IMG/VR virus record: IMGVR_UViG_3300046542_000227
Span: 124,001-188,000 of that record
Length of the DNA: 64,000 nucleotides
Strand: one strand, 5' to 3'
Source of the DNA: a virus
In this document: positions 11,178 to 52,903 of the stretch, one piece after another
How the letters are laid out: every line of letters starts with the position of its first letter
Position numbering within the stretch: position 1 is the first letter of the stretch
Position numbers and translations under genes: made by a program
Notes under the pieces: generated by a model
Database searches by the model: none
What the model was told of the DNA's origin: nothing
The model's input: only the letters and a program-made list of their open reading frames with translations

Positions 11178-11222
11178 CATAAAGCCCCTCCCATCGCGGG
11201 AGGGGCCTATGCCGCTTTTTTA
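11178..11222. terminator. Two-way terminator at a convergent junction
   Basis: GCCCCTCCC-ATCGC-GGGAGGGGC with outer flanks GACATAAA and TATGCCGC, then a run of T. It is the type form of a recurring terminator family. Confidence 0.85.
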
Positions 11223-12098
11223 TTTGACCGAAGCATCGATCCAAGCAATGCAGCCGCGCATCCAGGCGTAGAACGCATCGTAACCGACGCAAGGACGGTT
11301 GTAATACGCATGACTGAAACGAGCCGAGTAGTCGAAGATGTCATTGATCAAGCGGAAACAGTTCCGGTTGTTCTCAACATCACGGCCGTAGGTGGCATTA
11401 GCTACCAGCTTCGCACCGTCTTCACTGTAGAGGTACCAGCGCTTGTTCAGTGTGGTGGCGAACTCACGGTCCCAAGCATCATGATAGCCAGTGTGGCTAT
11501 AGAAGCTGTCGACCATGTAGATCAGACTGGCTACCAGTTTAGTAACCTGCTCTTTGTTCAGGGCAGGTAGGCTAGCACCCTTCTTGCTGACGTCGTATTC
11601 CGTACCCAGCACGTTGAACTTCGGCGGCACGAACTTGAGGTCCATGGTTTCGAGGTGCGCAGCGAGCTTGTCGGGTTTGGTGTAGCCATACGACTTAACA
11701 AACTCGAAGGAGGGCTCTACCTTCTTCCAGTACGGGTCAGCAATCTTCTTGTTGGCAGCGTTCGACTTAACCCAGGCATCGGCCAGCTTACGCATACCGC
11801 CATTGTAGTCGCCAGTGAACGGTTCGCCGTATTGGCTAATCTTGACTTCACCTTCCACGAAGCGGCGCTTAGCGAGCCATTCTGGATCGAGGTAAGTCTT
11901 GCTCAGGGTGGCTTTGTTCAGTTGTGGGTCACCCTTGTCGTCAGACAACTTAGGTGCACGACCATGGCGGATGTTACGGAAGACGTCACCGATTGATTGG
12001 AAGAAACCTTCTTCCGATACAGTCAGATAGTTTTCGATGGAGACGCGTTCGTCGCCAACGGCACCCACGTTTTCATTTAGGAACTTTTCGAGATCCAT
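11220..12098 (-). CDS. Head inner-body-like protein with cleavable propeptide, 292 residues
   Basis: One of four paralogues in this window. The N-terminus MDLEKFLNEN...TVSEEGFFQSIGDVFRN has a serine-x-glutamate site just before a conserved GF helix. phiKZ's head protease is reported to cut after (S/A/G)-x-E, so about 33 residues may be removed during head maturation. The C-terminus ends in IDASVK, as in two paralogues. The middle is helical and lysine/tyrosine-rich. The start codon follows the stop of the next gene directly, so the two are cotranscribed. Expected in the virion head with the DNA. Confidence 0.85.
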   Translation of the reverse strand: MDLEKFLNENVGAVGDERVSIENYLTVSEEGFFQSIGDVFRNIRHGRAPKLSDDKGDPQLNKATLSKTYLDPEWLAKRRFVEGEVKISQYGEPFTGDYNGGMRKLADAWVKSNAANKKIADPYWKKVEPSFEFVKSYGYTKPDKLAAHLETMDLKFVPPKFNVLGTEYDVSKKGASLPALNKEQVTKLVASLIYMVDSFYSHTGYHDAWDREFATTLNKRWYLYSEDGAKLVANATYGRDVENNRNCFRLINDIFDYSARFSHAYYNRPCVGYDAFYAWMRGCIAWIDASVK

Positions 12099-13109
12099 TT
12101 ATTTCACCGATGCATCAATGAGTCGAGCGTAAGCCCGGATGATCGAATCAACATGGCGCAAATGGAATGCGATCATGCGATTCGGAATGCTGTAGACGTT
12201 CTTCATGAGGTCAAACATGCGCTCATGGACGTCAGTGTCGATTGGGTTCTGGCTGGCAGCGTCCGGGCCAGTGTTGTACTCTTCGGCGCGTTCCATGTAA
12301 TCTTCGAGTTCACCGATGTACGACTTGACGACTTGGAAGCCCTTCATGTTGGCGAAGTCCACGCGAAGCTCGGCCATGATATCCAAAGCCTTGGAGACTT
12401 CGATGATACCTTGTGCCGAAGTCATGACTTCGGTTGCAGACAACGCGGCACGTTTGTAGTCTTTGAGCTTAGCTGCGTTGAATGGCTTGTCGCTGTCCAG
12501 CGCTGGCGTCAGGATACGCTGAACGTGGGTGTTACCGAACGTGGTCCGGAAGTCTACAGTCAGGCGCACTTGGGATTGCTCCAGTGCCTCACTGATTGCT
12601 TCGAACTCGAAGTAGTTCAGGTTATCGGCACCCTGAGTGTTGGTCTTGCGCATGATGCGCTGCAGTTCCAGGTCGATCAAACGCAGGTACTGAGAATACA
12701 CCTCGGCAATCTTGCGTTGTTTTTCGAGGAAGTCTGCAATCGGTGCGGCCAGGTCGGTGGTGTTGATTACACCGTCGATACCGATATAGTCGTAAGAACC
12801 ATCGAGCTTGAGGATGGTGCCTTCACGCACACTGCGCCGGGCCAACCAGTCAGCATTTAGATAGGTCTTCTCCAATGCCTTGACGATAACGTCACGACGA
12901 GCAGACCAGCCACCGGCCATGGCACTAACACCTGGCTTACCTGGCTCAGACAACCAAGTCCAGAAACGTTTGAGTACTTCGGTGAAACCCTCTTGGGAAA
13001 TGGTCTCGTCACCATCCACACCAAAGAGCGCATCGACCTGCGATTCGACCGGAACTACCGTGTCGGTATCGGCCGTTGCGTTGTTATCAAGAAAGCTTTG
13101 AATATCCAC
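12099..13109 (-). CDS. Head inner-body-like protein with cleavable propeptide, 336 residues (GTG start)
   Basis: A paralogue of 11220-12098, 16749-17771 and 18639-19568. The longest frame starts at 13157. A GTG at 13109 with AAGGGG six bases upstream gives MDIQSFLDNN, which aligns with MDLEKFLNEN and MDVDKWLASS of the paralogues, so I take that start. TISQEGF supplies the S-x-E cleavage site near residue 40, and the chain ends in IDASVK. The middle is a long helical region. Expected to be packaged in the head and cut by the maturation protease. Confidence 0.85.
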   Translation of the reverse strand: MDIQSFLDNNATADTDTVVPVESQVDALFGVDGDETISQEGFTEVLKRFWTWLSEPGKPGVSAMAGGWSARRDVIVKALEKTYLNADWLARRSVREGTILKLDGSYDYIGIDGVINTTDLAAPIADFLEKQRKIAEVYSQYLRLIDLELQRIMRKTNTQGADNLNYFEFEAISEALEQSQVRLTVDFRTTFGNTHVQRILTPALDSDKPFNAAKLKDYKRAALSATEVMTSAQGIIEVSKALDIMAELRVDFANMKGFQVVKSYIGELEDYMERAEEYNTGPDAASQNPIDTDVHERMFDLMKNVYSIPNRMIAFHLRHVDSIIRAYARLIDASVK

Positions 13110-13193
13110 ATTAGTCCCCTTGGACATGCCCCAAATGTTTACCACATACAATGCCAATTTGCCGTCAGCATTGCATGTGGTAAGCCCTGAGAG

Positions 13194-14918
13194 TTAGAAC
13201 TGTCGCACGTCGAAGTCGACGGTCATCGTTCCGGTGAAGGTTGCTGGTACACCCGATACCTGCGTAATCCGCACGTCGATGTCGTTACCTGGAACCACTA
13301 CAAACGCGCCAGTAAAGCTGAACCGAGGTGGTCCATCCTTAACGTGATCATAGTACGCCACAACGTTGGTAGCCAACCCTGCCACAAACAGCTGCGCTAT
13401 ATAACGCTGACCGTTAGCGGGTACGTTGTTACCTTGGAGGTTACAGATCACACGAGCGAACGAAGCACGCAATGGCGTGTTGATAACGGTAGCACCAGAT
13501 GACACCACACCACACTTATACGGATCCACTGTGGCACCATCAAAACTCATGCGGGTTGCAGAGTTATGTGGGATCGTAGTGCCTGGGTCGGTCCGATGTA
13601 CGCGTGGTTCGATGACCCGTCCTTTATCCGTGTAGCTATAGGTGTCCAACTCAGCCGGCCACAGTGGGCTACCAGGATCGATCTTCATACCGTCGCCAGT
13701 ATAATGGAAGCTGAACGCCTGGTGCATGTCCACACCGTTCCACAGTGTCTTACGGACAGCAATGTAGTCGGTGATGTCTGGAATACCACCATCGAGCGGA
13801 TCGTTATGGATCAGTCGACCTGCGATAGGACCAGTACAGTTGGTATAGCGCACGATACGTGGCATGTGTCCTTGCAACACAATACCACCACGGTCTGGTC
13901 GATCCTGAGCACCGAAGTAGTTAGTGCACGCGTCGTAGATAACACCCACTTCAATGGACGTATCGGTACCTGTAGTAAAGCGTGGTGGTGCTGCGAACCA
14001 GTACACCCCAGGGAGGCCACCGTTTTCACCACCGAAGCGCACCTTCGTCAGACGAATACCACCGAAGGAATCGACCCAACGGCAACGAGGACCGAACACA
14101 CCACTAGGCACCAGCATGATGTCGGATATGGTGAGCAAGCCAACGTGCTTAATAACAGCGGTATCGAGATCGAACCAATCTGAATACGGCTGCATCCAAC
14201 CACCAGAAATGAAGGTGTGGTCGCACTCGGTGAACAGCGAACGACGGCAACGCGACCAACGGCAGTTTTCGAAGATAGCTTGAGTCGAAGTTACACCGTA
14301 GTCAGTCGCAGTGTTATGCAGGTTCACCGCGTAGTCGTTAGAGCCAACGAACGTACAGTTGCGGAACATCCACAGACCGAAGTTAACGTTCTTGTTGTTG
14401 AGGTGAACTTGAGTCAAGCCACCAATGAAGTAGATGTTCTCGTAGTGAGCACGGTAACTGAGGTTCCCCACGATCATGTCTACGTTCGGCCCGGCTTCAA
14501 TAGAAGCAAAGCCATTGGCACGCAGGAACACAGCGGTAGGCATGGTACGGGTGAGTTTAACCCGAGCACCTTTAGGGATCGTTAGACCTGGGGTAACCAC
14601 CACAGTACTAGGCTCACCCGCACCGATCATCGGCTTCCAGTATTTGGTCTTGGAGATCTGCCAGTTAACAGCACGCTCGTATGCATCCGAGTCGTCGTTA
14701 ACCCCATCACCCACAAAACCTTTGAAGTCAGACAGATCACGATTACCATCGAGTTTAATTTCGACGGTCTGATCTACAGTAGAAGTAGAAGTGACATCAC
14801 CAGGACGATAGGTGATTTTACGGGAACCCAAAGAACTTAAAAGGTCTGTTCGGATGCCGGCGTCGTTGATAAGTTGATTGACATAAATAGCTAACTTTGT
14901 TAAAGCACCGGCAGACAT
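13194..14918 (-). CDS. Tail spike or fibre with pectate-lyase-like beta-helix, 574 residues
   Basis: The ATG at 14918 has GGAG six bases upstream; the longer frame would need a TTG. After a short N-terminal part, residues about 74-90 read FVGDGVNDDSDAYERA, the classic entry to the right-handed beta-helix of phage tail spikes and pectate lyase 3 proteins. Short beta-rich turns follow for about 350 residues, then a beta-sandwich-like end. Such proteins bind or cut surface polysaccharide. No catalytic residues can be assigned. It is first in a leftward unit with two inner-body proteins and is probably expressed late. Confidence 0.8.
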   Translation of the reverse strand: MSAGALTKLAIYVNQLINDAGIRTDLLSSLGSRKITYRPGDVTSTSTVDQTVEIKLDGNRDLSDFKGFVGDGVNDDSDAYERAVNWQISKTKYWKPMIGAGEPSTVVVTPGLTIPKGARVKLTRTMPTAVFLRANGFASIEAGPNVDMIVGNLSYRAHYENIYFIGGLTQVHLNNKNVNFGLWMFRNCTFVGSNDYAVNLHNTATDYGVTSTQAIFENCRWSRCRRSLFTECDHTFISGGWMQPYSDWFDLDTAVIKHVGLLTISDIMLVPSGVFGPRCRWVDSFGGIRLTKVRFGGENGGLPGVYWFAAPPRFTTGTDTSIEVGVIYDACTNYFGAQDRPDRGGIVLQGHMPRIVRYTNCTGPIAGRLIHNDPLDGGIPDITDYIAVRKTLWNGVDMHQAFSFHYTGDGMKIDPGSPLWPAELDTYSYTDKGRVIEPRVHRTDPGTTIPHNSATRMSFDGATVDPYKCGVVSSGATVINTPLRASFARVICNLQGNNVPANGQRYIAQLFVAGLATNVVAYYDHVKDGPPRFSFTGAFVVVPGNDIDVRITQVSGVPATFTGTMTVDFDVRQF

Positions 14919-15023
14919 AGATATCTCCAATGGTCGGTTCTATTGCTTATCACATATCGTTAGCAAGGAAATACCGGATGGTTTTATAGTCTGTTACTTC
15001 TAAACTGACATGGACTATTCGCC

Positions 15024-15296
15024 GTGACTGAGATCCTGCCCCGCCATCAATTTGAATTCCTAATGAAACACAACGACTTCGTTATTAATGAGGGTCGTAT
15101 TTCGTGTAACTTGTGTGGCAGTAATTGTGGGCAGTGTGGTGTCGGTCGTCAGCAATCGGACTGTCAGGATTACATTGATCACCATGCTGAGGAATTCGGA
15201 ATCAAACCCTTGCCCAAACTTAAAGACATGCCATTCCCGTCACCGATGGTGATCCTGATGGCTATCGCCTCTATCGTACACGTCTTCGTTCAATAA
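15024..15296 (+). CDS. Cysteine-rich protein with C-terminal membrane segment, 90 residues
   Basis: The start is uncertain: GTG at 15024 or an in-frame ATG at 15063, neither with a good ribosome site. Five cysteines cluster (CNLCGSNCGQCGVG ... C) like a small zinc or iron-sulfur knuckle. The last about 18 residues are hydrophobic (MVILMAIASIVHVFV), suggesting a tail anchor. No family was recognised. Confidence 0.6.
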   Translation: MTEILPRHQFEFLMKHNDFVINEGRISCNLCGSNCGQCGVGRQQSDCQDYIDHHAEEFGIKPLPKLKDMPFPSPMVILMAIASIVHVFVQ

Positions 15297-15305
15297 GGAC
15301 ATCCC

Positions 15306-15713
15306 ATGCTGACCAAAGCCGCCACACCTGAAGTTAAAGCCCTGTATGACCAAGCCATGGCTATCTTTAATAGCTATGCTATCGCTCGGGTTTATGCCAG
15401 CGAGATCACGATGGTGATTGATCGTAAGCCAAATGCCACCGAACACGACATCTGGTTCTACAACTTCAGTAAAGGTCCTGAGCGCTTTGCTCAGCTGGTT
15501 AATGCTGGCGAGTACATGTTGCTGGACTCTGGATTGTCCGAGATCAAGGTGGTGAACTCCATGCGTGGGTTGCCTACGGTATTGACTGAAGCACGTGAAC
15601 GCTGCTGCCAGATCGAAACCGGGCTACCGTATCTTGTCGCTACCGGTAAAGCAGACCTACCCGAACGTCCTCGTGGTCGTGGTTACCTGCGTCGTAGTAA
15701 GGAGGTCGCATGA
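15306..15713 (+). CDS. Hypothetical protein, 135 residues
   Basis: AAGGAC precedes the ATG. Helix-rich, soluble, with a basic C-terminal tail (RPRGRGYLRRSKEVA) that could bind nucleic acid. It overlaps the next gene by four bases (ATGA). No family was recognised. Confidence 0.8.
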   Translation: MLTKAATPEVKALYDQAMAIFNSYAIARVYASEITMVIDRKPNATEHDIWFYNFSKGPERFAQLVNAGEYMLLDSGLSEIKVVNSMRGLPTVLTEARERCCQIETGLPYLVATGKADLPERPRGRGYLRRSKEVA

Positions 15714-16171
15714 CACTGAATCGATATCGTTTTTATAAAACCGAGAACCAGTACTCGGGTCGGTGTCCGGCAGGGATGACGCCTGATCATCTTGGTGCCT
15801 ACTGCTTGGTGGATGATGTCGCTTTAGACCTCGATCAGGCCAAGGCACTACGTGACTTTAACCGACGACTGAAGCGGTTAGGTCATGGGTCGGTACATGA
15901 GTTAGTAGTTAAGCTCGAAGCTGAACAAGAGGCGTTCGATAAGACCCGTGCGCGCATCGAGCCGATGAAACAACATCTTCAGTTCTTCAAGGTAGCCGAC
16001 GGTGAATCCGAACGAGGTTTTAAGGTTGTCCGTGTTCGCGATGACCATGCCCAATTACTGATTGATGAACACATGGAGATCTGGGTAGCTTTTATTAACC
16101 AGAGACCTAGCGATAGAACGATGGTGTTCTTGGATGCCGACTTGCACATCAAGCGCATCATGCATGTTTAA
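15710..16171 (+). CDS. Hypothetical protein, 153 residues
   Basis: Starts inside the previous stop (ATGA). It has a central charged helix of about 45 residues (coiled-coil-like, LVVKLEAEQEAFDKTRARIE) flanked by strands. It is soluble and of unknown role. It is followed ten bases later by the structured 100-base element. Confidence 0.8.
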   Translation: MTLNRYRFYKTENQYSGRCPAGMTPDHLGAYCLVDDVALDLDQAKALRDFNRRLKRLGHGSVHELVVKLEAEQEAFDKTRARIEPMKQHLQFFKVADGESERGFKVVRVRDDHAQLLIDEHMEIWVAFINQRPSDRTMVFLDADLHIKRIMHV

Positions 16172-16180
16172 TTATATACA

Positions 16181-16280
16181 GCAGTCGTAGTGCTTGCACC
16201 TTGAGAACCTTATCTACTCTCTTGACCGATGGCGTACCCGTCCGCATTAAACATCGGTAGGACTTCGGTCCCACGACTGC
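16181..16280 (+). ncRNA. Compact 100-base structured RNA, cloverleaf-like
   Basis: The ends pair perfectly: GCAGTCGT 16181-16188 with ACGACTGC 16273-16280. Inside lie GTG-CTTG-CAC at 16190-16199, GAGA/TCTC at 16203-16221, ACCGATG 16225-16231 with CATCGGT 16252-16258, and GGAC-TTCG-GTCC at 16260-16271, the classic stable C(UUCG)G loop. That is a closed junction with four arms. There is no GTTCGAAT T-arm, so it is not an ordinary tRNA. It could be a small RNA or a leader for the 30-residue gene 25 bases downstream. Confidence 0.55.
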
Positions 16281-16305
16281 GCCTAATTAAACAGAGGATC
16301 GTGAT

Positions 16306-16398
16306 ATGGCAGCGAAACGTAAACCTGCACCTAAGGTCAAACCTGAGGCTAAGCCGGACAATCGTATCAGTATCAAGATCCCGCTGTGCCTGCAATAA
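16306..16398 (+). CDS. Very small basic protein, 30 residues
   Basis: The ATG at 16306 has GAGG eight bases upstream, and the 30 codons are followed by a good terminator seven bases after the stop. The product is lysine/proline-rich (KRKPAPKVKPEAKPDN) and ends in a short hydrophobic stretch. The basic, flexible composition suggests RNA or DNA contact. It is supported by its ribosome site and its isolated position between a structured RNA and a terminator. Confidence 0.6.
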   Translation: MAAKRKPAPKVKPEAKPDNRISIKIPLCLQ

Positions 16399-16404
16399 AC
16401 ATCT

Positions 16405-16425
16405 AGCCCGCTTCGGCGGGCTTTA
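16405..16425 (+). terminator. Terminator
   Basis: AGCCCGC-TTCG-GCGGGCT followed by TTATGCCGTC. Confidence 0.85.
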
Positions 16426-16460
16426 TGCCGTCTCGGACTTGAATGCACTATCCTTGAGAA

Positions 16461-16480
16461 CTATATTGTCTTTGTGAATA
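16461..16480 (+). promoter_or_regulatory. phiKZ-type early promoter element (TTGT variant)
   Basis: CTATATTGT-N6-GAATA, 35 bases before the start of the 58-residue gene. It shares the TTGT form with the copy at 26911. Confidence 0.65.
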
Positions 16481-16515
16481 AGGATCAATCGATCCTTAAC
16501 CATGGAGTAACAATA

Positions 16516-16692
16516 ATGAGCTTCTTTGACATCTTCAAACATGAACCTAAACGTGCTGCTCTGAACCATCGGTTGGCTTCGGCTAAACGTGGTCTGGAAC
16601 GTGCTATGCGTTTGCATGGTATCAACAGCGACCGGGCTCGTGAGTTTGACAAACTCATCGATAAACTGGAAGCCGAGAAACATTATGCATAA
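16516..16692 (+). CDS. Small basic helical protein, 58 residues
   Basis: Preceded by GGAG and its own early-type promoter, ended by a two-way terminator: a complete single-gene unit. The product is almost entirely charged helix (RLASAKRGLERAMRLHGINSDRAREFDKLIDKLEAE) with the positive charge in the first half. Early expression and size suggest a host-takeover or regulatory peptide; this is inference only. Confidence 0.75.
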   Translation: MSFFDIFKHEPKRAALNHRLASAKRGLERAMRLHGINSDRAREFDKLIDKLEAEKHYA

Positions 16693-16700
16693 GTGCATAG

Positions 16701-16745
16701 GCGGCATAGCGCTCTCCCTCACGGGAGAGCGACTATCCTTTTTTC
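16701..16745. terminator. Two-way terminator
   Basis: CGCTCTCCC-TCAC-GGGAGAGCG flanked by GCGGCATA on the left and ACTATCCTTTTTTC on the right, between convergent genes. Confidence 0.8.
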
Positions 16746-16748
16746 TTT

Positions 16749-17771
16749 TTACTTAACCGACGCATCGATCAGATGGATCAGGCCACGCAACATCAAGCCG
16801 ATCTCATAACCACCATTAGAGGTGTTGGCAGACCAGTCGTACTCGATACCGTAAGAGAACGTAGACAAGTCATCAGCCATGCGACCGATCTCATCCACGG
16901 TGTCTTGGTCTTTGACGTGGAACTTGATCATCGCCACTACGCGTGGGTCTTTCTCAGTCCAAGCACGATCAGCACTGCCCTGGGTGTACATGTCGGTGTA
17001 CCAGCTGGTATCCTTGAAAGGATTCATTGGCGAACCATAGTAAACCGTAGTCAGTTGCTGGATCAGACCTGCCGCCTTAACTACACCCTCAGCATCGAGA
17101 TGTGGCAGTCTGGCGTCAGCCGGTTCCAACGCCCACACCATGTCAACGAAGTCAGCACCGTCTGGTACCGCAGCGTTATTCTTGGCACGGACTACACGAA
17201 CCATCTCAGGATCTTTCCAGCTACTGCCAGTGAAGAGATCCAGATACGGCTTAACCTGAGCCAACAGTTTGTTGATGACTGGCTTGTTCTTGTCCGAGCA
17301 AACTTTCATCGCTTGGATCAACTTAGCCACAGTGGCCGCTGGATCACCTTGCAACAGGTTACCACCTTTAACCATGACCTCGCCCGGGATCAGACGACGA
17401 GACTTCACCCACGTCAGATTACCGTACGTGCGTTTGATCTCTTCCATCTTGGACGGCATGTTCATGTCGGACAGTTGTGGTTTCTTGCCACGCATGACGT
17501 TACGCAGCACATCGCCAGCGGCGTCCATGAAACCTTCGTTAGACAATGTCTCACCCAACGGAGCGATCTGGTCATCACTGCCCATACCGACCATTTCCAG
17601 CCAGTCTTCGGTGGAAGACTTTTTGTCGTCTTCATGGTCTTCACGAATTTCTTCGATGTCCGACTTGATGAAGTCCTTGATGGTTTCTTCCGGCAGGTCT
17701 TTCTTCTCACCGAACTCGCGAACCCGTTTAATGGCTTCGCCGATCTCGGCTCCTACGTTCTTCTCCGACAT
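16749..17771 (-). CDS. Head inner-body-like protein with long propeptide, 340 residues
   Basis: A paralogue of the 11220, 12099 and 18639 genes. A lysine/glutamate-rich acidic helix of about 50 residues precedes the shared block: STEDWLEMVGMG, then TLSNEGFMDAAGDVLRNV and GKKPQLSD. The latter closely matches RHGRAPKLSD of the 11220 product. Cleavage at S-N-E would remove about 80 residues, more than in the other members. The C-terminus is LIDASVK. Expected to enter the head with the scaffold and be trimmed by the maturation protease. Confidence 0.85.
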   Translation of the reverse strand: MSEKNVGAEIGEAIKRVREFGEKKDLPEETIKDFIKSDIEEIREDHEDDKKSSTEDWLEMVGMGSDDQIAPLGETLSNEGFMDAAGDVLRNVMRGKKPQLSDMNMPSKMEEIKRTYGNLTWVKSRRLIPGEVMVKGGNLLQGDPAATVAKLIQAMKVCSDKNKPVINKLLAQVKPYLDLFTGSSWKDPEMVRVVRAKNNAAVPDGADFVDMVWALEPADARLPHLDAEGVVKAAGLIQQLTTVYYGSPMNPFKDTSWYTDMYTQGSADRAWTEKDPRVVAMIKFHVKDQDTVDEIGRMADDLSTFSYGIEYDWSANTSNGGYEIGLMLRGLIHLIDASVK

Positions 17772-17782
17772 GAGGTGTTTCC

Positions 17783-18583
17783 TTAAGCGTTAGCCAACCA
17801 CCTGGTCAGGAGGGGCAGTTGACGATGGGGGTCTGGGAATAGCCGTGCCGTAATGCCGAAGCGATCGCTACGATCAAAGCGTTTCCATTTACCTTCGGGT
17901 TGGGCCAACCGGTCGGCAACGATGTACATCGCCATCAGGTTCACACCCAAGCCACAATGGCTGCTATACACTTCGATGTTCTCGGAGCGTTTGGTTTCTT
18001 TCTCGATGCAGCACTGCCAAGCCACGACGCCGTCGGTACGGCTGAAGATAGAAGTGGTCGGTACTGGCGGGGTACGCTTGAAGGCTTCGAACTCAGCGCC
18101 TTCAGGTACGGACTGACCGCTGGAGAGTTCATACAGACGCCATGCAGTAGTGGCCTTAGCCGACTCAGCAAACGGTGTACCCATGGTCACGACTTGGCGA
18201 ACCATGTCAGTGAGTTCATGCGATACGTGGCGAGCGTAGATACCACCCAGAGACCAGCCGATCACAGTGACCTTACGACCACCGTGCAGGGCGTAGACTT
18301 CACGCACCTTAGCGAGGCAGCCCTCCAGCACGCCTTCACGTGGACCACGGTTGACGCCTTGATCCCAGCCGTAAGTGGTGTAGCCGAGGTTGTCCAAGAA
18401 CTCACGCAGTACTGCAGTGGTGAGATCACCCGCACCAAAGCCTGGGAACACCACAACCGGATGGCCATCGCCTTTAGGGGCACGACGCATCAACGGCTTC
18501 GTCAGCAACGCAGTAGCCAGTTCCCCCAGCGCACGCCATTCCAGAGTACGCAGGATATAGCCAGGAGCTTTCAATTCACGCAT
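17783..18583 (-). CDS. Alpha/beta hydrolase (lipase/esterase-like), 266 residues
   Basis: Residues 42-50 (PVVVFPGFG) form the oxyanion strand, and GWSLGG at 109-114 is the nucleophile elbow with S111. D184 (SRTDGVVAW) and H209 (YSSHCGLG) complete a credible Ser-Asp-His triad. There is no signal peptide, so it would act in the host cytoplasm or at the membrane, or be packaged. It sits between two inner-body protein genes in a leftward late-type unit, an unusual place for a bacterial-style lipase. The substrate (phospholipid, triglyceride, polyester) cannot be told. GAGGT gives a good ribosome site. Confidence 0.88.
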   Translation of the reverse strand: MRELKAPGYILRTLEWRALGELATALLTKPLMRRAPKGDGHPVVVFPGFGAGDLTTAVLREFLDNLGYTTYGWDQGVNRGPREGVLEGCLAKVREVYALHGGRKVTVIGWSLGGIYARHVSHELTDMVRQVVTMGTPFAESAKATTAWRLYELSSGQSVPEGAEFEAFKRTPPVPTTSIFSRTDGVVAWQCCIEKETKRSENIEVYSSHCGLGVNLMAMYIVADRLAQPEGKWKRFDRSDRFGITARLFPDPHRQLPLLTRWLANA

Positions 18584-18638
18584 GGTGTTACCTCACTTTT
18601 ATTATTGGCAGTGGGATGATCCCAATTGATAATGCATG

Positions 18639-19568
18639 TTACTTGATGGAGCGATCAATCCAACGGCAAGACGCCAGCAACACGTCACCGTAATAACGAC
18701 GCACGACTGCAAACTCCTCAGAGCCCCAGTACATCGCAGCAGGGTCTAACCGGGTGGACACGTAGATCCAATCCTTTAACTTGCGCTGTGAGCCTTTGGG
18801 GAGCTGTGGGTTCTTGCTGTGACACAGTTGGATGAAGGGACGGGTCTGTACTGGACCTACCACGTCAAACGAAACCCGGGTAAAGGCATCACGCAGGGTA
18901 TTGAGCTCTTCGAGTTGTTCGAGGATACTCGCTACTAGCGTTTCGGTCTGGACGTAGTTCAGTGGACGGGCTTGCCATGCTACTTCAACTGGAGGCTTAA
19001 TCAGGTTAAAAGCTTTAGGGATTAGCCGATCCCCCACTGGAAACACCCGCGGTGGGTTCTTATAGAAGCTACCGACTTCAGGGATACCCTTGAGAAGCTT
19101 CAGGGCCTTGTCTAAGGCTTCATCGGTTAGCCCCGGGGTCAATGCTTCAACCACAGGCTTCACGGCTTTAAAGTAGGCTGTAACGGCTGCTAGCCATTCA
19201 CGGTGGACGGTGATGCAGAATGTCCCTGCATCCACCACCTGTTCACGGAGTTGCTCGGGGAAGATCTGATCCAAGTAAGGCAATAGATCACTACCTTCAA
19301 CTTTGGACTTAACCCAGTTCTGTTTACGCAGCCAGTCCTTGTTACCGTACTGACGACTGATCGCCGTCATGGTGGACTTAAAGTTGTACGTGTGTTCGAG
19401 TCTAACGGGTTTGTAGTCATCCCCTTTCAAACTCTTACCGAGTGAACCAAAGATAAACTCCTTGGCTTTATCGAAGAACCCTTCTTGTGAAATCACCAGG
19501 TTCTCCAGACTAACTCGGGTTTCGGTATCGAGTGCTGCCGATGAGGCTAGCCACTTATCAACGTCCAT
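18639..19568 (-). CDS. Head inner-body-like protein with cleavable propeptide, 309 residues
   Basis: The ATG at 19568 (AGGGGG upstream) gives MDVDKWLASS, matching the other paralogues; the longer frame from 19631 would run through a terminator hairpin and is rejected. LVISQEGFFDKAKEFIFG carries the S-x-E site near residue 34. The end reads WIDRSIK, a variant of IDASVK. It is the most diverged member in the middle region. Confidence 0.85.
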   Translation of the reverse strand: MDVDKWLASSAALDTETRVSLENLVISQEGFFDKAKEFIFGSLGKSLKGDDYKPVRLEHTYNFKSTMTAISRQYGNKDWLRKQNWVKSKVEGSDLLPYLDQIFPEQLREQVVDAGTFCITVHREWLAAVTAYFKAVKPVVEALTPGLTDEALDKALKLLKGIPEVGSFYKNPPRVFPVGDRLIPKAFNLIKPPVEVAWQARPLNYVQTETLVASILEQLEELNTLRDAFTRVSFDVVGPVQTRPFIQLCHSKNPQLPKGSQRKLKDWIYVSTRLDPAAMYWGSEEFAVVRRYYGDVLLASCRWIDRSIK

Positions 19569-19634: not shown

Positions 19635-20828
19635 TTAGCGTGGCAACCAGATACCTTGGGACTTCGGACGGTGCAGTGGGAAGTCGAAAGTACGACCGTG
19701 GTCATCGTGGCGAACCACGTTCACACGGTACTGACCATTGTCTTGTTCTTGTGGCGAGGCTTGGGTAGCAGCCACGTCCAACCAAGTGGTCATGTAAGGC
19801 AGCGGCATTGCCAGTGGGGCTTTAAAGTCCACTGGGCGCTCCAGTACATCCAGCGCATCAGCTACGTTGTAGTTGATGTAGGAACCAATCTCGTCCCAAC
19901 CTACACCCGGTACAATCGAACCGGAGTCACGTTGGAAATTCCGCCAGCGCATTTCAGAAGCACGTACTTCGAGTGCCATGTCATCGAGCAGTTGACGGTT
20001 GGCTTTCCAGCAAGCACGACCGCGTGGAGTGGACATCTCGTACTGGAGCACGTACTTACCGACGTTAACGTGGATCTCGGCTTCGTCTTGTGCGATGCGC
20101 TGTACCGCTTTGCAGATTGGCATGTAAGCACCAGTCTGAGCGATACCGCCAGTCACAGCAAACGAACCCATGAAGTTCACACGTTCCAGCAGGAACAGAG
20201 CCACGGTGAACATGAACGCAGCACGATAGGCTTCTTCGGAGTCACGAGCGATCAGACCCAGGGAGACCTTCAGACCCGTGCGATAGGATTCACCCATCAC
20301 CCGGCCGATGGTTTCCATACGCGACATGCCTTCTTTGATCTGCAGTACGCCCACCAGCACCGCGTTCGGTGCATCGAAGCTGTAACGGACGATCTCGGAA
20401 TAGGTAGTAGCGTGCAGGTTCTCGTTGGCTACGATTTGGTCCCACACTACTTTAAGTGCAGAATTGGTCACGAAGTGGTTACCCACTGCCATGATCGAGT
20501 TGGCGGCCATGGTGTCGCCTTCCCATTGCCAACCCAGGTTCTGGATCATAGCTTGGGCGATGGCCTGTTGCTCTTTACCTTCTTGCTTGAACTCCAGCAT
20601 ACAAGGGCTGAAGTCAAACTCATTGGTGTCCCAGTCGAGGCCACGCAGGCTACGCCAGAAGTCCCAGAGCTTTGGGTGTGGATCGTTTACGGTGTCGAGC
20701 AAACCAGCCTGCTCACCCAAGAACAAACGGCTGTCGCCATAGTTCTCTTTTTCGGCGTTGAAGATGTTACGGTCAAACATTGCAACTGATCCCGGTAGGA
20801 CCAGACCTGCTTCATTCAAATTGGACAT
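19635..20828 (-). CDS. nrdB: Ribonucleotide reductase class Ia, small subunit
   Basis: Supplies the diferric-tyrosyl radical for reduction of ribonucleotides to deoxyribonucleotides. E136-x-x-H139-x3-Y143 (ENLHATTY) gives two iron ligands and the radical tyrosine; DEAEIH later gives another E-x-x-H pair, and WQWEGD near residue 103 an acidic ligand. At 397 residues it is near the usual family size. It lies downstream of nrdA on the same strand after a 64-base gap with a small hairpin, so both are probably one operon making dNTPs for phage replication. Confidence 0.95.
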   Translation of the reverse strand: MSNLNEAGLVLPGSVAMFDRNIFNAEKENYGDSRLFLGEQAGLLDTVNDPHPKLWDFWRSLRGLDWDTNEFDFSPCMLEFKQEGKEQQAIAQAMIQNLGWQWEGDTMAANSIMAVGNHFVTNSALKVVWDQIVANENLHATTYSEIVRYSFDAPNAVLVGVLQIKEGMSRMETIGRVMGESYRTGLKVSLGLIARDSEEAYRAAFMFTVALFLLERVNFMGSFAVTGGIAQTGAYMPICKAVQRIAQDEAEIHVNVGKYVLQYEMSTPRGRACWKANRQLLDDMALEVRASEMRWRNFQRDSGSIVPGVGWDEIGSYINYNVADALDVLERPVDFKAPLAMPLPYMTTWLDVAATQASPQEQDNGQYRVNVVRHDDHGRTFDFPLHRPKSQGIWLPR

Positions 20829-29369: not shown

Positions 29370-30044
29370 ATGTCAGTCGATATTACGAAGTACTTGATCG
29401 CTACTCCACTCCCGGTGTCATTGGAAAACCCAGTAGCCTTAGAACTGATGGGTGATGAAGCATTGCTCTACTGCCCAGAAGTAATCAGTCTGTTGGCTGA
29501 TGGTTCCGTACAGCTTACCGCTCCTACTAAAGGCGCATCCAGCAAGAGCACGCATCGTACACGTTGTGAATGGAAAGAACCTGAGTACTGGACTCTGGAC
29601 AGTGCGGCTAAACATTGGAGCCGTCAGGAAATGACGGTAACCAAAGTCAACGCTGCTGGGAAAGTAGTGATTGCGCAAGTCCATGTGAAGGACGCCACTA
29701 CACCACCGCTTAAAGTGTTCTGGAACAAAGGTAAGATTACCTGCGGTTTCCGTGCTAGCTTTGTTAGCCCAGAGATCGTTAACAGTACACTACATCCAGA
29801 TGTTCCTTTGGGTGCACGCTTTAAGATCAGCATCGGTGTTACTGCTGCTGGCTCGGTCTCGGTTAATGTGTTGTGCAACGGTGTGCCTTCAGCGAAGGTC
29901 ATGATGCGTCTGGGTAGTTCCTGGGATAACCAATGCCTCCAGTTCCATGGTGGTGTCTACAACCAGATCGATTATAGTGACGACACCTTAGCCGAAGATG
30001 GTTCGGTGTGCGTTATCCACGACCTCAGTACAACCCACGAGTAA
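29370..30044 (+). CDS. Hypothetical protein, 224 residues
   Basis: Almost entirely beta strands with many Thr/Val/Lys repeats and no membrane segment, suggesting beta-sandwich domains. The region just upstream (CTATTCTTTGTGACC) resembles a shortened form of the TTGT-type promoter. No family was recognised. Followed by a terminator. Confidence 0.8.
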   Translation: MSVDITKYLIATPLPVSLENPVALELMGDEALLYCPEVISLLADGSVQLTAPTKGASSKSTHRTRCEWKEPEYWTLDSAAKHWSRQEMTVTKVNAAGKVVIAQVHVKDATTPPLKVFWNKGKITCGFRASFVSPEIVNSTLHPDVPLGARFKISIGVTAAGSVSVNVLCNGVPSAKVMMRLGSSWDNQCLQFHGGVYNQIDYSDDTLAEDGSVCVIHDLSTTHE

Positions 30045-51310: not shown

Positions 51311-51413
51311 AAAGCCTCCTAATTTGCCGTGTAAGGCGTTTTAACTAAATAAAGTACCCTCATACCTGATAGTATACTAGAGGGGGCGTATACGTGATCT
51401 AAAGGCGTTTCAG

Positions 51414-51436
51414 AACTACATCATAGACGTAGTTAA
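51414..51436 (+). promoter_or_regulatory. Degenerate early promoter element with dyad
   Basis: CTACATCAT-N6-AGTTA is one base from the CTATATCAT form in the first box and keeps the six-base spacing. AACTAC 51414-51419 and GTAGTT 51429-51434 also form a perfect inverted repeat around it. Confidence 0.4.
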
Positions 51437-51451
51437 CCTCGGGAACCACCT

Positions 51452-51787
51452 ATGAACAAACAAAACACGGCGATGTCTTACAAAATAGACATAGCGGCTG
51501 TGCTCAACGAGGTGCGCAATGTTCCGCCTACCCTCAATGGGTATCTGGTGGACGCTGATACGTTAGTTGACATATTCATACTGCGCACACTGAACTCATT
51601 CGAGGTCTGTACCTATTTCCCAACACCGCCGGTGATAACAGACCCGATCGTTCTGGCATGGATCGACAGCTTAGAATACGCAAAACGATTGTTGTGGCAA
51701 CTGTCCAAGGTCCCGCCGCAACACTCAGGAACACAGGTTTCGTATATACGTCAAGGCGAAAGCATTTGGCTATTCTACATCATTTAA
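51452..51787 (+). CDS. Hypothetical protein, 111 residues
   Basis: Starts MNKQNTAMSYK; an in-frame ATG at 51473 is an alternative. The ribosome site is weak. Helical and soluble, with no recognised motif. First gene of a long run of small overlapping genes. Confidence 0.65.
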   Translation: MNKQNTAMSYKIDIAAVLNEVRNVPPTLNGYLVDADTLVDIFILRTLNSFEVCTYFPTPPVITDPIVLAWIDSLEYAKRLLWQLSKVPPQHSGTQVSYIRQGESIWLFYII

Positions 51788-51802
51788 CGGAATGCGAGAA
51801 AT

Positions 51803-52903
51803 ATGAGCGGTAAACTGTTCAGCCTGAATACCCGTTGCTACATCAGCCTCCTCCTCACTGTATCCGCCAACTACTGCAAACACCATAACGAGATCGCACA
51901 ATCAGGCCGCATTACTGAACCGTTCCACCGTACCTTGGTCACCCAACCGTTGATCCCATTCGATGCTCAACGCGCCATTGCGTTTATCCATGCCATGGTT
52001 AAAGCCGACGTGTCTTCGTTCTTGGCTTATGGCAAAGGCGATACTCAGTCCGACGTCATGGCTGAACTGTTGTTCGGCGAAGGCACTCAGTTGACCGGTG
52101 GTATCGGTCAGGTTGTGGATGACTTCATGTCGGTGGAAGAAGTCGATGACATTTATATGGACATCGATGGCCAGCTCTCACGGTTCTTGGAACGTGACAC
52201 GTGGGCGGTGGTTGACGTCTACGACATGGGCAAGTCGGTCAGCGTAGTCATTCAAGAAGACATGCGTATTAAGGAGTGGAAACAACTGCGTGGGTATCGC
52301 AGTACATTCACCCCAACGCTGGAACTTGAACTGTCTGACATGTTCAGCTACCTGCGCACCAAGACCAACCAGACCCTGAAGAAGATCGAAGTAAAGAAAG
52401 ACGAGGCTACCTTTACTGTGTGGCCGGGTGAACGTCTGGACTTCAAACCGATGTTGCTGGAAATGTTGCTGGTTCGTTATCCGAACCTGCGTACGGATTC
52501 CCAGATCGGTGCATCGACTGAACGTACTGCCGCTGGCGGTCCACGTAATGTTGAAATACTGGTGGCTGCAGGTCTGGTGAATAATGGCACTCAGGTTATT
52601 GACCTGAATGACCAACAGATCCGTACCGTCAACAACTTCATCGATCGTCTGGTTACGCCGGTCGTAGAATCCTACGCAGTACATCGCTTCATGCAGACGC
52701 TGGATCCACTGACTGTTTACACGGTCGAGATCACCAGCGCCGAGAAACTGGTCATCACCCGTCAAGACGACGACGTGGCGACTGTTACACCTGCTGACGA
52801 CAATGTGCGTTTGAAGGAACTGGCAGAATCCTACCTGCGTGGTGATTTCCTGCCAACCAAGGAACGTGAAGAAGCCGAACGCTACATTCAAGAAAACCAA
52901 TAA
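51803..52903 (+). CDS. Hypothetical protein, 366 residues
   Basis: Soluble, acidic, with helices N-terminally and beta strands in the middle (VVDVYDMGKSVSVVIQED). The C-terminal about 40 residues are charged helix. No nucleotide-binding or metal motif. Codons are richer in C-endings than those of its small neighbours, hinting at higher expression. Confidence 0.8.
   Translation: MSGKLFSLNTRCYISLLLTVSANYCKHHNEIAQSGRITEPFHRTLVTQPLIPFDAQRAIAFIHAMVKADVSSFLAYGKGDTQSDVMAELLFGEGTQLTGGIGQVVDDFMSVEEVDDIYMDIDGQLSRFLERDTWAVVDVYDMGKSVSVVIQEDMRIKEWKQLRGYRSTFTPTLELELSDMFSYLRTKTNQTLKKIEVKKDEATFTVWPGERLDFKPMLLEMLLVRYPNLRTDSQIGASTERTAAGGPRNVEILVAAGLVNNGTQVIDLNDQQIRTVNNFIDRLVTPVVESYAVHRFMQTLDPLTVYTVEITSAEKLVITRQDDDVATVTPADDNVRLKELAESYLRGDFLPTKEREEAERYIQENQ

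What the first reader, a model, noticed from the sequence alone, without database searches (positions are those of the whole stretch)
11220..19568. Four paralogous head inner-body proteins sharing a cleavage site and an IDASVK tail
Products of 11220-12098, 12099-13109, 16749-17771 and 18639-19568 each carry S-x-E just before a G-F helix (TVSEEGF, TISQEGF, TLSNEGF, VISQEGF) after a short propeptide, and end in I-D-(A/R)-S-(V/I)-K. The S-x-E site fits the reported specificity of the phiKZ head protease. The strictly C-terminal signature shared by all four is a second constraint; a targeting or assembly tag at the chain end is inferred.
Basis: partly seen in the sequence, partly recalled or inferred. 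Interest (0 to 1): 0.72.

Follow-up and report, generated by a model that had tools for sequence, protein, structure and literature searches.

The report
Protease-released modules inside jumbo-phage heads
Four neighbouring genes of a Noxifer-like giant phage encode precursors of a head-protein module that the phage's own protease should cut free; relatives carry the same module singly, in tandem or fused to a known inner-head protein, and in phiKZ relatives a whole module has been exchanged at the cut site.

Summary
In detail: exactly four of 1062 ORFs in the 267-kb record carry both S-x-E|G-F near the N-terminus and the ID(A/R)S(V/I)K end. They are real but remote paralogs (22-28% identity) of one family whose best-known member is phiKZ gp303, an MS-identified, processed head protein; 201phi2-1 gp455 is another MS-identified virion member. 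The family is not Pfam PF12699, the classic phiKZ inner-body family, of which this record has its own set. All 29 full-length module copies compared have [S/A/G]-x-E at their start, so the cleavage reading is well supported. The C-terminal-tag reading is not: in phiKZ, 201phi2-1, Psa21 and D6 the same motif lies 9-553 residues before the chain end, and both AlphaFold models place it in the last helix of the domain. The more interesting result is architecture. The roughly 260-residue module occurs alone, in tandem with a cleavage site before each copy, or fused behind a PF12699 domain. phiKZ and KTN4 are 97.7% identical up to 11 nt past the site, then carry different modules, then are 98.9% identical again just past the stop. 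I propose head-packaged, protease-released, exchangeable modules, possibly ejected effectors analogous to T4 internal proteins (function inferred).

The parts
11220..12098 (-). W1, 292-aa precursor; orthologs Noxifer gp219 (64%) and IMG/VR contig G001 (59%)
12009..12017 (-). W1 protease site S28-E-E30 | G31F; a second S-x-E (RVSIE, E22) lies 8 residues earlier
11223..11240 (-). W1 IDASVK, end of the last helix (273-290) in the model
12099..13109 (-). W2, 336-aa precursor (GTG start; longer starts possible up to 13157)
12990..12998 (-). W2 protease site S38-Q-E40 | G41F
12102..12119 (-). W2 IDASVK domain end
16749..17771 (-). W3, 340-aa precursor, longest propeptide (79 aa); contig G001 keeps only the propeptide part
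17535..17543 (-). W3 protease site S77-N-E79 | G80F
16752..16769 (-). W3 IDASVK domain end
18639..19568 (-). W4, 309-aa precursor, beside nrdB (19635-20828) as gp303-type genes are in phiKZ relatives; in the same deep clade as the phiKZ gp303 last module
19482..19490 (-). W4 protease site S27-Q-E29 | G30F; second S-x-E (RVSLE, E22)
18642..18659 (-). W4 IDRSIK, end of the last helix (284-307) in the model

Best explanation
The four genes encode precursors of one head-protein family, the 'gp303 module': a short N-terminal propeptide, a cut after S-x-E by the phage's S80 prohead protease (the phiKZ gp175 homolog), and a roughly 260-residue, mostly helical mature module. The propeptide, not the C-terminus, most likely brings the precursor into the prohead; the protease then frees the module during head maturation and it stays in the head with the DNA, probably to be ejected into the host. 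The IDASVK end is the conserved last turn of the module's terminal helix, kept by folding. The unit is modular: other jumbo phages string two or three modules together with a cleavage site before each, or fuse one behind a PF12699 inner-head protein, and modules have been exchanged at the cleavage site. Shown here: homology, site conservation, module boundaries, exchange. Known from relatives: virion location and cleavage. Inferred: propeptide targeting, ejection, effector role.
For: A profile from the W1/W3 group finds W2 (E 2.8e-4), W4 (3e-4), phiKZ gp303 (8e-14), 201phi2-1 gp455 (1e-12), Psa21 (2e-22), D6, RVTF4, Phabio, KTN4, DT01, Erwinia RAY; hhalign E 4e-13 to W2, 4e-9 to W4, 6e-14 to the gp303 C-terminal module. 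MS: gp303 cleavages in phiKZ virions; gp455 a virion protein. [SAG]-x-E at the start of 29 of 29 full-length modules. Conserved S-x-E in this phage's homologs of other phiKZ head proteins: gp93 VSNE-14, gp153 TVSEE, gp86 TISQE. Module boundary equals site: the record's fifth relative matches the D6 middle module from the site onward (89-322 vs 348-577, E 6.5e-15). Exchange: phiKZ and KTN4 97.7% identical over nt 1-1109 (site ends at nt 1098), no DNA similarity after, 98.9% identical again just past the stop; 12 records phiKZ-type, 35 other, sampled as KTN4 and SL2, which share one module. Tree: phiKZ and KTN4 last modules in different deep clades (96/95); RVTF4 last module with 201phi2-1 (100/98) although its first module groups with D6 and Psa21 (100/99). 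Fusion to PF12699 in PS119XW.
Against: No virion proteomics for this phage. PMC10449902 built a C-terminal FLAG construct of PHIKZ303, but its text does not list gp303 among the proteins validated as injected. W1-W4 match no known effector or defence-related family, and the W1 profile and model match no solved structure. AlphaFold confidence is moderate (pLDDT 72 and 70). The propeptide-targeting motif was found post hoc.
Confidence: 0.72

Rival explanations
1. One reading: the shared C-terminal hexapeptide is a targeting or assembly tag that docks these proteins in the prohead core or inner body.
For: Near-identical ends in four proteins of 22-28% overall identity, kept in Noxifer and G001. 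Precedent: in SPN3US the C-terminal propeptide of the prohead protease is proposed to target it to the core (PMC7411985).
Against: The motif is followed by 11 residues in phiKZ gp303, 323 in 201phi2-1 gp455 module 1, 272 in Psa21 and 553 in D6. KTN4, with an exchanged module, has LMQASIS 22 residues from the end, and SL2 the same ending. It lies in the last domain helix in two models. Several phiKZ inner-head proteins of other families are packaged with C-terminal 3xFLAG tags (PMC10449902).
Confidence: 0.08
2. Ordinary structural head proteins: the modules are scaffold, core or inner-body building blocks with no role in the host; copy number and exchange are neutral turnover.
For: No function is known for the SPN3US head paralog families, and paralog numbers vary widely between giant phages (PMC5694885). 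Weak fold similarity to virion and internal head proteins of other jumbo phages (Foldseek E 0.02-0.1).
Against: A whole-module replacement between nearly identical phages, with breakpoints at the protease site and the stop, is unusual for an interlocking structural part. Contig G001 has lost the mature part of W3.
Confidence: 0.3
3. The S-x-E-G-F element is not a cleavage site but only the conserved start of the folded domain.
For: The element directly precedes a predicted helix; there are no cleavage data for this phage.
Against: MS maps cleavages to phiKZ gp303 (exact positions are not in the text read). S/A/G-x-E is the phiKZ protease motif (PMC10449902), and the SPN3US E protein site is AAQE|GWK (PMC7411985). 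The models place the site in a low-confidence stretch (residues 10-59 in W1, 7-30 in W4).
Confidence: 0.08

Closest known systems
phiKZ gp303 / 201phi2-1 gp455 (PHROG 24656 and 17428), processed head proteins
   Same: Homologous module, same S-x-E|G start and same terminal motif; W4 sits beside nrdB, gp303 one gene away from nrdB
   Different: gp303 and gp455 are polyprotein-like with a long N-terminal part; here the modules are separate single-module genes with 29-79-aa propeptides
PF12699 phiKZ_IP internal head proteins (phiKZ gp92-96, gp162, gp163; SPN3US gp53/54)
   Same: Head-internal location, S/A-x-E processing, paralog expansion; fused to this module in PS119XW; weak fold similarity
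   Different: No sequence homology detected (hhalign E 0.11); this record carries a separate PF12699 set
T4 internal proteins Ip1-Ip3
   Same: Works like: short N-terminal leader removed by the prohead protease, variable mature part; Ips are injected and block distinct GmrSD enzymes (PMC12373910)
   Different: No homology claimed or tested; injection and target unknown here; modules can be strung as polyproteins

Membership tests
gp303-type head module | Sequence homology to phiKZ gp303 over the module | tested here: met
   HMM E 8e-14 for gp303 with the W1/W3 seed; hhalign W4 vs gp303C 1.3e-8, W2 vs gp303C 1.7e-7
gp303-type head module | S/A/G-x-E immediately before the module | tested here: met
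   29 of 29 full-length modules; three partial copies (N-half of phiKZ and KTN4 gp303, D6 downstream ORF) show none
gp303-type head module | Present and cleaved in the virion | not testable with these tools
   Known for phiKZ gp303 (PMC10449902) and, presence only, 201phi2-1 gp455; no data for this phage
PF12699 phiKZ_IP | Pfam profile match | tested here: not met
   No match in W1-W4 at E 1; hhalign E 0.11 against gp92-96, 162, 163
PF12699 phiKZ_IP | Shared fold | tested here: inconclusive
   Foldseek hits to internal/virion head proteins only at E 0.02-0.1
Substrates of the phiKZ-type S80 prohead protease | Protease gene in the same genome | tested here: met
   Record 51410-52186, 51% to gp175; Pfam Peptidase_S80 E 5e-84
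Substrates of the phiKZ-type S80 prohead protease | Cleavage at the motif | not testable with these tools
   Needs N-terminal peptides
T4 internal proteins (analogy) | N-terminal packaging leader shared by unrelated mature parts | tested here: inconclusive
   Pattern L-x-x-[YFW]-[LI]..VSxE finds W1, W4 and three inner-body-cluster genes among 7 hits in 348 ORFs, and gp93, gp153, gp163 in phiKZ (3 of 194), but it was designed post hoc
T4 internal proteins (analogy) | Injected and acts in the host | not testable with these tools
   gp303 is not listed among injected proteins in the text of PMC10449902
SPN3US paralog family B | Homology to SPN3US gp138-154 | not tested
   SPN3US proteins were not fetched

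The most novel reading that the evidence does not exclude
Jumbo phages of the phiKZ group use the prohead protease to liberate a mixed payload of exchangeable, ejected modules from polyprotein or single-module precursors, and swap payload modules at the protease site while keeping the head-routing part: a giant-phage counterpart of the T4 internal-protein locus, here expanded to at least four separate genes.
Probability: 0.4. Interest if true: 0.78.

Novelty: new variant of a known kind. Interest (0 to 1): 0.55.

Why it matters
Giant phages carry many unexplained proteins in their heads, and what protects the genome before the phage nucleus forms is open. A module family whose boundaries are set by the head protease, and which has been swapped whole between phiKZ relatives, gives a short list of candidate ejected effectors and a natural cassette for testing. 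It also replaces the tag idea with a testable routing model (the propeptide routes, the module acts).

Tried and rejected
C-terminal tag: rejected (motif internal in polyproteins, helix end). PF12699 membership: rejected by Pfam and hhalign. Known effector or defence-related families: nothing (Pfam, PADLOC). Solved folds: none at E 0.001. IMG/VR scans with W1, W2, W3 and PS119XW gp099 found no relatives, W4 found only Noxifer; alignment A1 gave no search pattern; A2 and gp303 added G001 and PA7. The 2012 phiKZ proteolysis paper is not in the library and supplements could not be read, so the gp303 cleavage positions were not checked. A third (SL2) allele suspected from the breakpoint table turned out to be the KTN4 module with a nearby indel.
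Full report
Identity of the window. The window is bases 124001-188000 of a 267,320-base virus record. Its nearest annotated relative is Pseudomonas phage Noxifer (77.9% over part of the region), and the neighbourhood holds RNR beta and alpha, DHFR, terminase and tail genes in the Noxifer order. It is a phiKZ-group jumbo phage: its record holds close homologs of the phiKZ major capsid protein, protease and RNA polymerase subunits.

Observation. The four ORFs, sites and ends are as described. Only these four of 1062 ORFs in the whole record end in [ILV]Dx[ST]x[KR], and all four carry SxEGF near the N-terminus. Shuffled ORFs give the tail 4 times in 106,200. Noxifer has one-to-one orthologs with the same sites and ends; a third contig (G001) has W1, W2 and W4, while its W3 ORF stops after 75 residues, keeping the propeptide and losing the module.

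Family. Neither Pfam nor PADLOC recognises W1-W4. PHROGs link W1 and W3 to phrog_24656, a head and packaging family. phiKZ gp303 is 646 aa and lies one gene away from nrdB; W4 lies beside nrdB here. A profile of W1, W3, their orthologs and the PS119XW/HPP-Temi C-terminal domain finds W2, W4, gp303, 201phi2-1 gp455, D6, Psa21, RVTF4, Phabio, KTN4, DT01, Erwinia RAY gp186 and Proteus phage 10 in one pass, and hhalign confirms the groups. W2 and W4 are the weakest links by direct sequence (E about 3e-4 against 1570 ORFs) but are significant by profile comparison (4e-13, 4e-9). The W4 model retrieves the W1, W2 and W3 orthologs of Noxifer in a fold search (E 0.0017-0.015, probability 1.00); this is not independent, because the alignment behind the model contained those groups. 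The classic phiKZ inner-body family PF12699 is distinct by sequence (hhalign E 0.11) and is present separately in this record.

Virion location and cleavage. For this phage both are inferred. For relatives: 201phi2-1 gp455 is annotated 'identified as virion protein by mass spectrometry; similar to phiKZ gp303'; PHIKZ303 is annotated structural head protein; semi-tryptic virion peptides map cleavages to gp94, gp177 and gp303, and the motif is S/A/G-x-E with LSxE enriched (PMC10449902). All 29 full-length module copies start at [SAG]-x-E; three partial copies (the N-terminal half of phiKZ and KTN4 gp303 and a D6 downstream ORF) show no such start. The copies are related, so they are not 29 independent observations. 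The SPN3US E protein gp53 is cut at AAQE|GWK, the same local arrangement (PMC7411985). The record encodes an S80 protease 51% identical to gp175, and its homologs of phiKZ gp93, gp153 and gp86 keep S-x-E at or near the corresponding positions.

The tail. In single-module proteins the motif ends the chain. In polyproteins it does not: WVDRSIK + 11 residues (phiKZ), YLDVSIK + 323 (201phi2-1 module 1), YMERSIK + 272 (Psa21), YMERSFK + 553 (D6). AlphaFold places it at the end of the last helix in W1 (273-290) and W4 (284-307) (mean pLDDT 72 and 70, 11-row alignments). The simplest reading is a conserved helix end of a domain that happens to be last.

Modularity and exchange. The module occurs singly (window, Noxifer, G001, DT01), as two or more copies with a site before each (201phi2-1, Phabio, Psa21, RVTF4, D6; phiKZ gp303 has one full copy plus a partial, diverged one), and behind a PF12699 domain within or beside internal head genes (PS119XW gp099, HHBS36_1, HPP-Temi). 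The segment between the two modules of 201phi2-1 gp455 matches an internal head protein PHROG (phrog_6807, E 3e-5). D6 has a middle segment behind TISNE|G that is not detectably the same domain, and this record carries that segment as a stand-alone gene (record 247987-249093) whose similarity to D6 begins at the site. phiKZ and KTN4 are 97.7% identical over nt 1-1109 of the gene and dissimilar after it; the site ends at nt 1098; identity returns (98.9%) within about 10 nt past the stop. Of 47 matching records (some of them duplicate entries), 12 hold the phiKZ type and 35 lose similarity at nearly the same place; the two of these read in full, KTN4 and SL2, share one module. The counts by themselves fit a single exchange on the phiKZ tree. 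The phiKZ-type module also resembles 201phi2-1 module 1 whereas the KTN4 similarity to 201phi2-1 ends just past the site. The two modules fall in different deep clades (96/95), and RVTF4 shows a second mismatch of first and last modules. The difference between phiKZ and Churi gp303 had been noted as low conservation (PMC11849849) without this explanation in the passage read.

Mechanism. Shown by sequence: precursor = leader + S-x-E + module; module boundary = cleavage site; exchange at that boundary. Known in relatives: head location and cleavage. Inferred: the leader routes the precursor to the prohead. Suggestive only: a short N-terminal pattern L-x-x-[YFW]-[LI]..VSxE is shared by W1, W4 and three genes of the inner-body cluster, and in phiKZ hits only gp93, gp153 and gp163, all reported as injected, but the pattern was drawn up after looking at some of them. 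Inferred: ejection and a host-directed role, by analogy with T4 internal proteins, which share only a leader and block different GmrSD enzymes (PMC12373910). Against ejection: a PHIKZ303-FLAG construct was made, yet gp303 is not listed as injected in the text.

Verdict. Observation confirmed; cleavage and head location well supported through homologs; C-terminal tag not supported; a new, modular and exchangeable variant of the known class of processed giant-phage head proteins.

Noticed in passing
record G000:C1:247987-249093 (-), outside the window: Fifth related precursor (368 aa, VVSME|GLLSAIKNFL), ortholog in Noxifer (55%), equivalent to the middle segment of the phage D6 polyprotein.
   Followed up: yes
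window 17783-18583 (-): Alpha/beta-hydrolase gene (Abhydrolase_1, E 1e-6) inserted between W3 and W4; absent at this place in Noxifer and G001; no S-x-E leader.
   Followed up: partly
window 13194-14930 (-): 578-aa tail-spike-like ORF with no PHROG match between W2 and W3; G001 has three ORFs of this kind (758, 782, 608 aa) beside its W2, Noxifer has none there.
   Followed up: partly
L041:6078-6305 (-): G001 homolog of W3 is a 75-aa ORF that keeps the propeptide (77% identical) and abuts W4: the mature module is missing.
   Followed up: yes
window 29370-30044 (+): Protein starting MSVDITKYLIATPLPVSLEN fits the leader pattern of the inner-head proteins (phrog_31475, unknown function); could be another protease substrate.
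   Followed up: no
L037:570-3222: In phage PA1C the gene matching the PF12699-module fusion is annotated as three adjoining or overlapping ORFs, a possible frameshift or sequencing error.
   Followed up: no
L022:28165-30105 and L030:2915-4798: The gp303 N-terminal half (nearly identical in phiKZ and KTN4) contains a diverged, partial copy of the module (residues 39-200) without its own recognised S-x-E start.
   Followed up: partly
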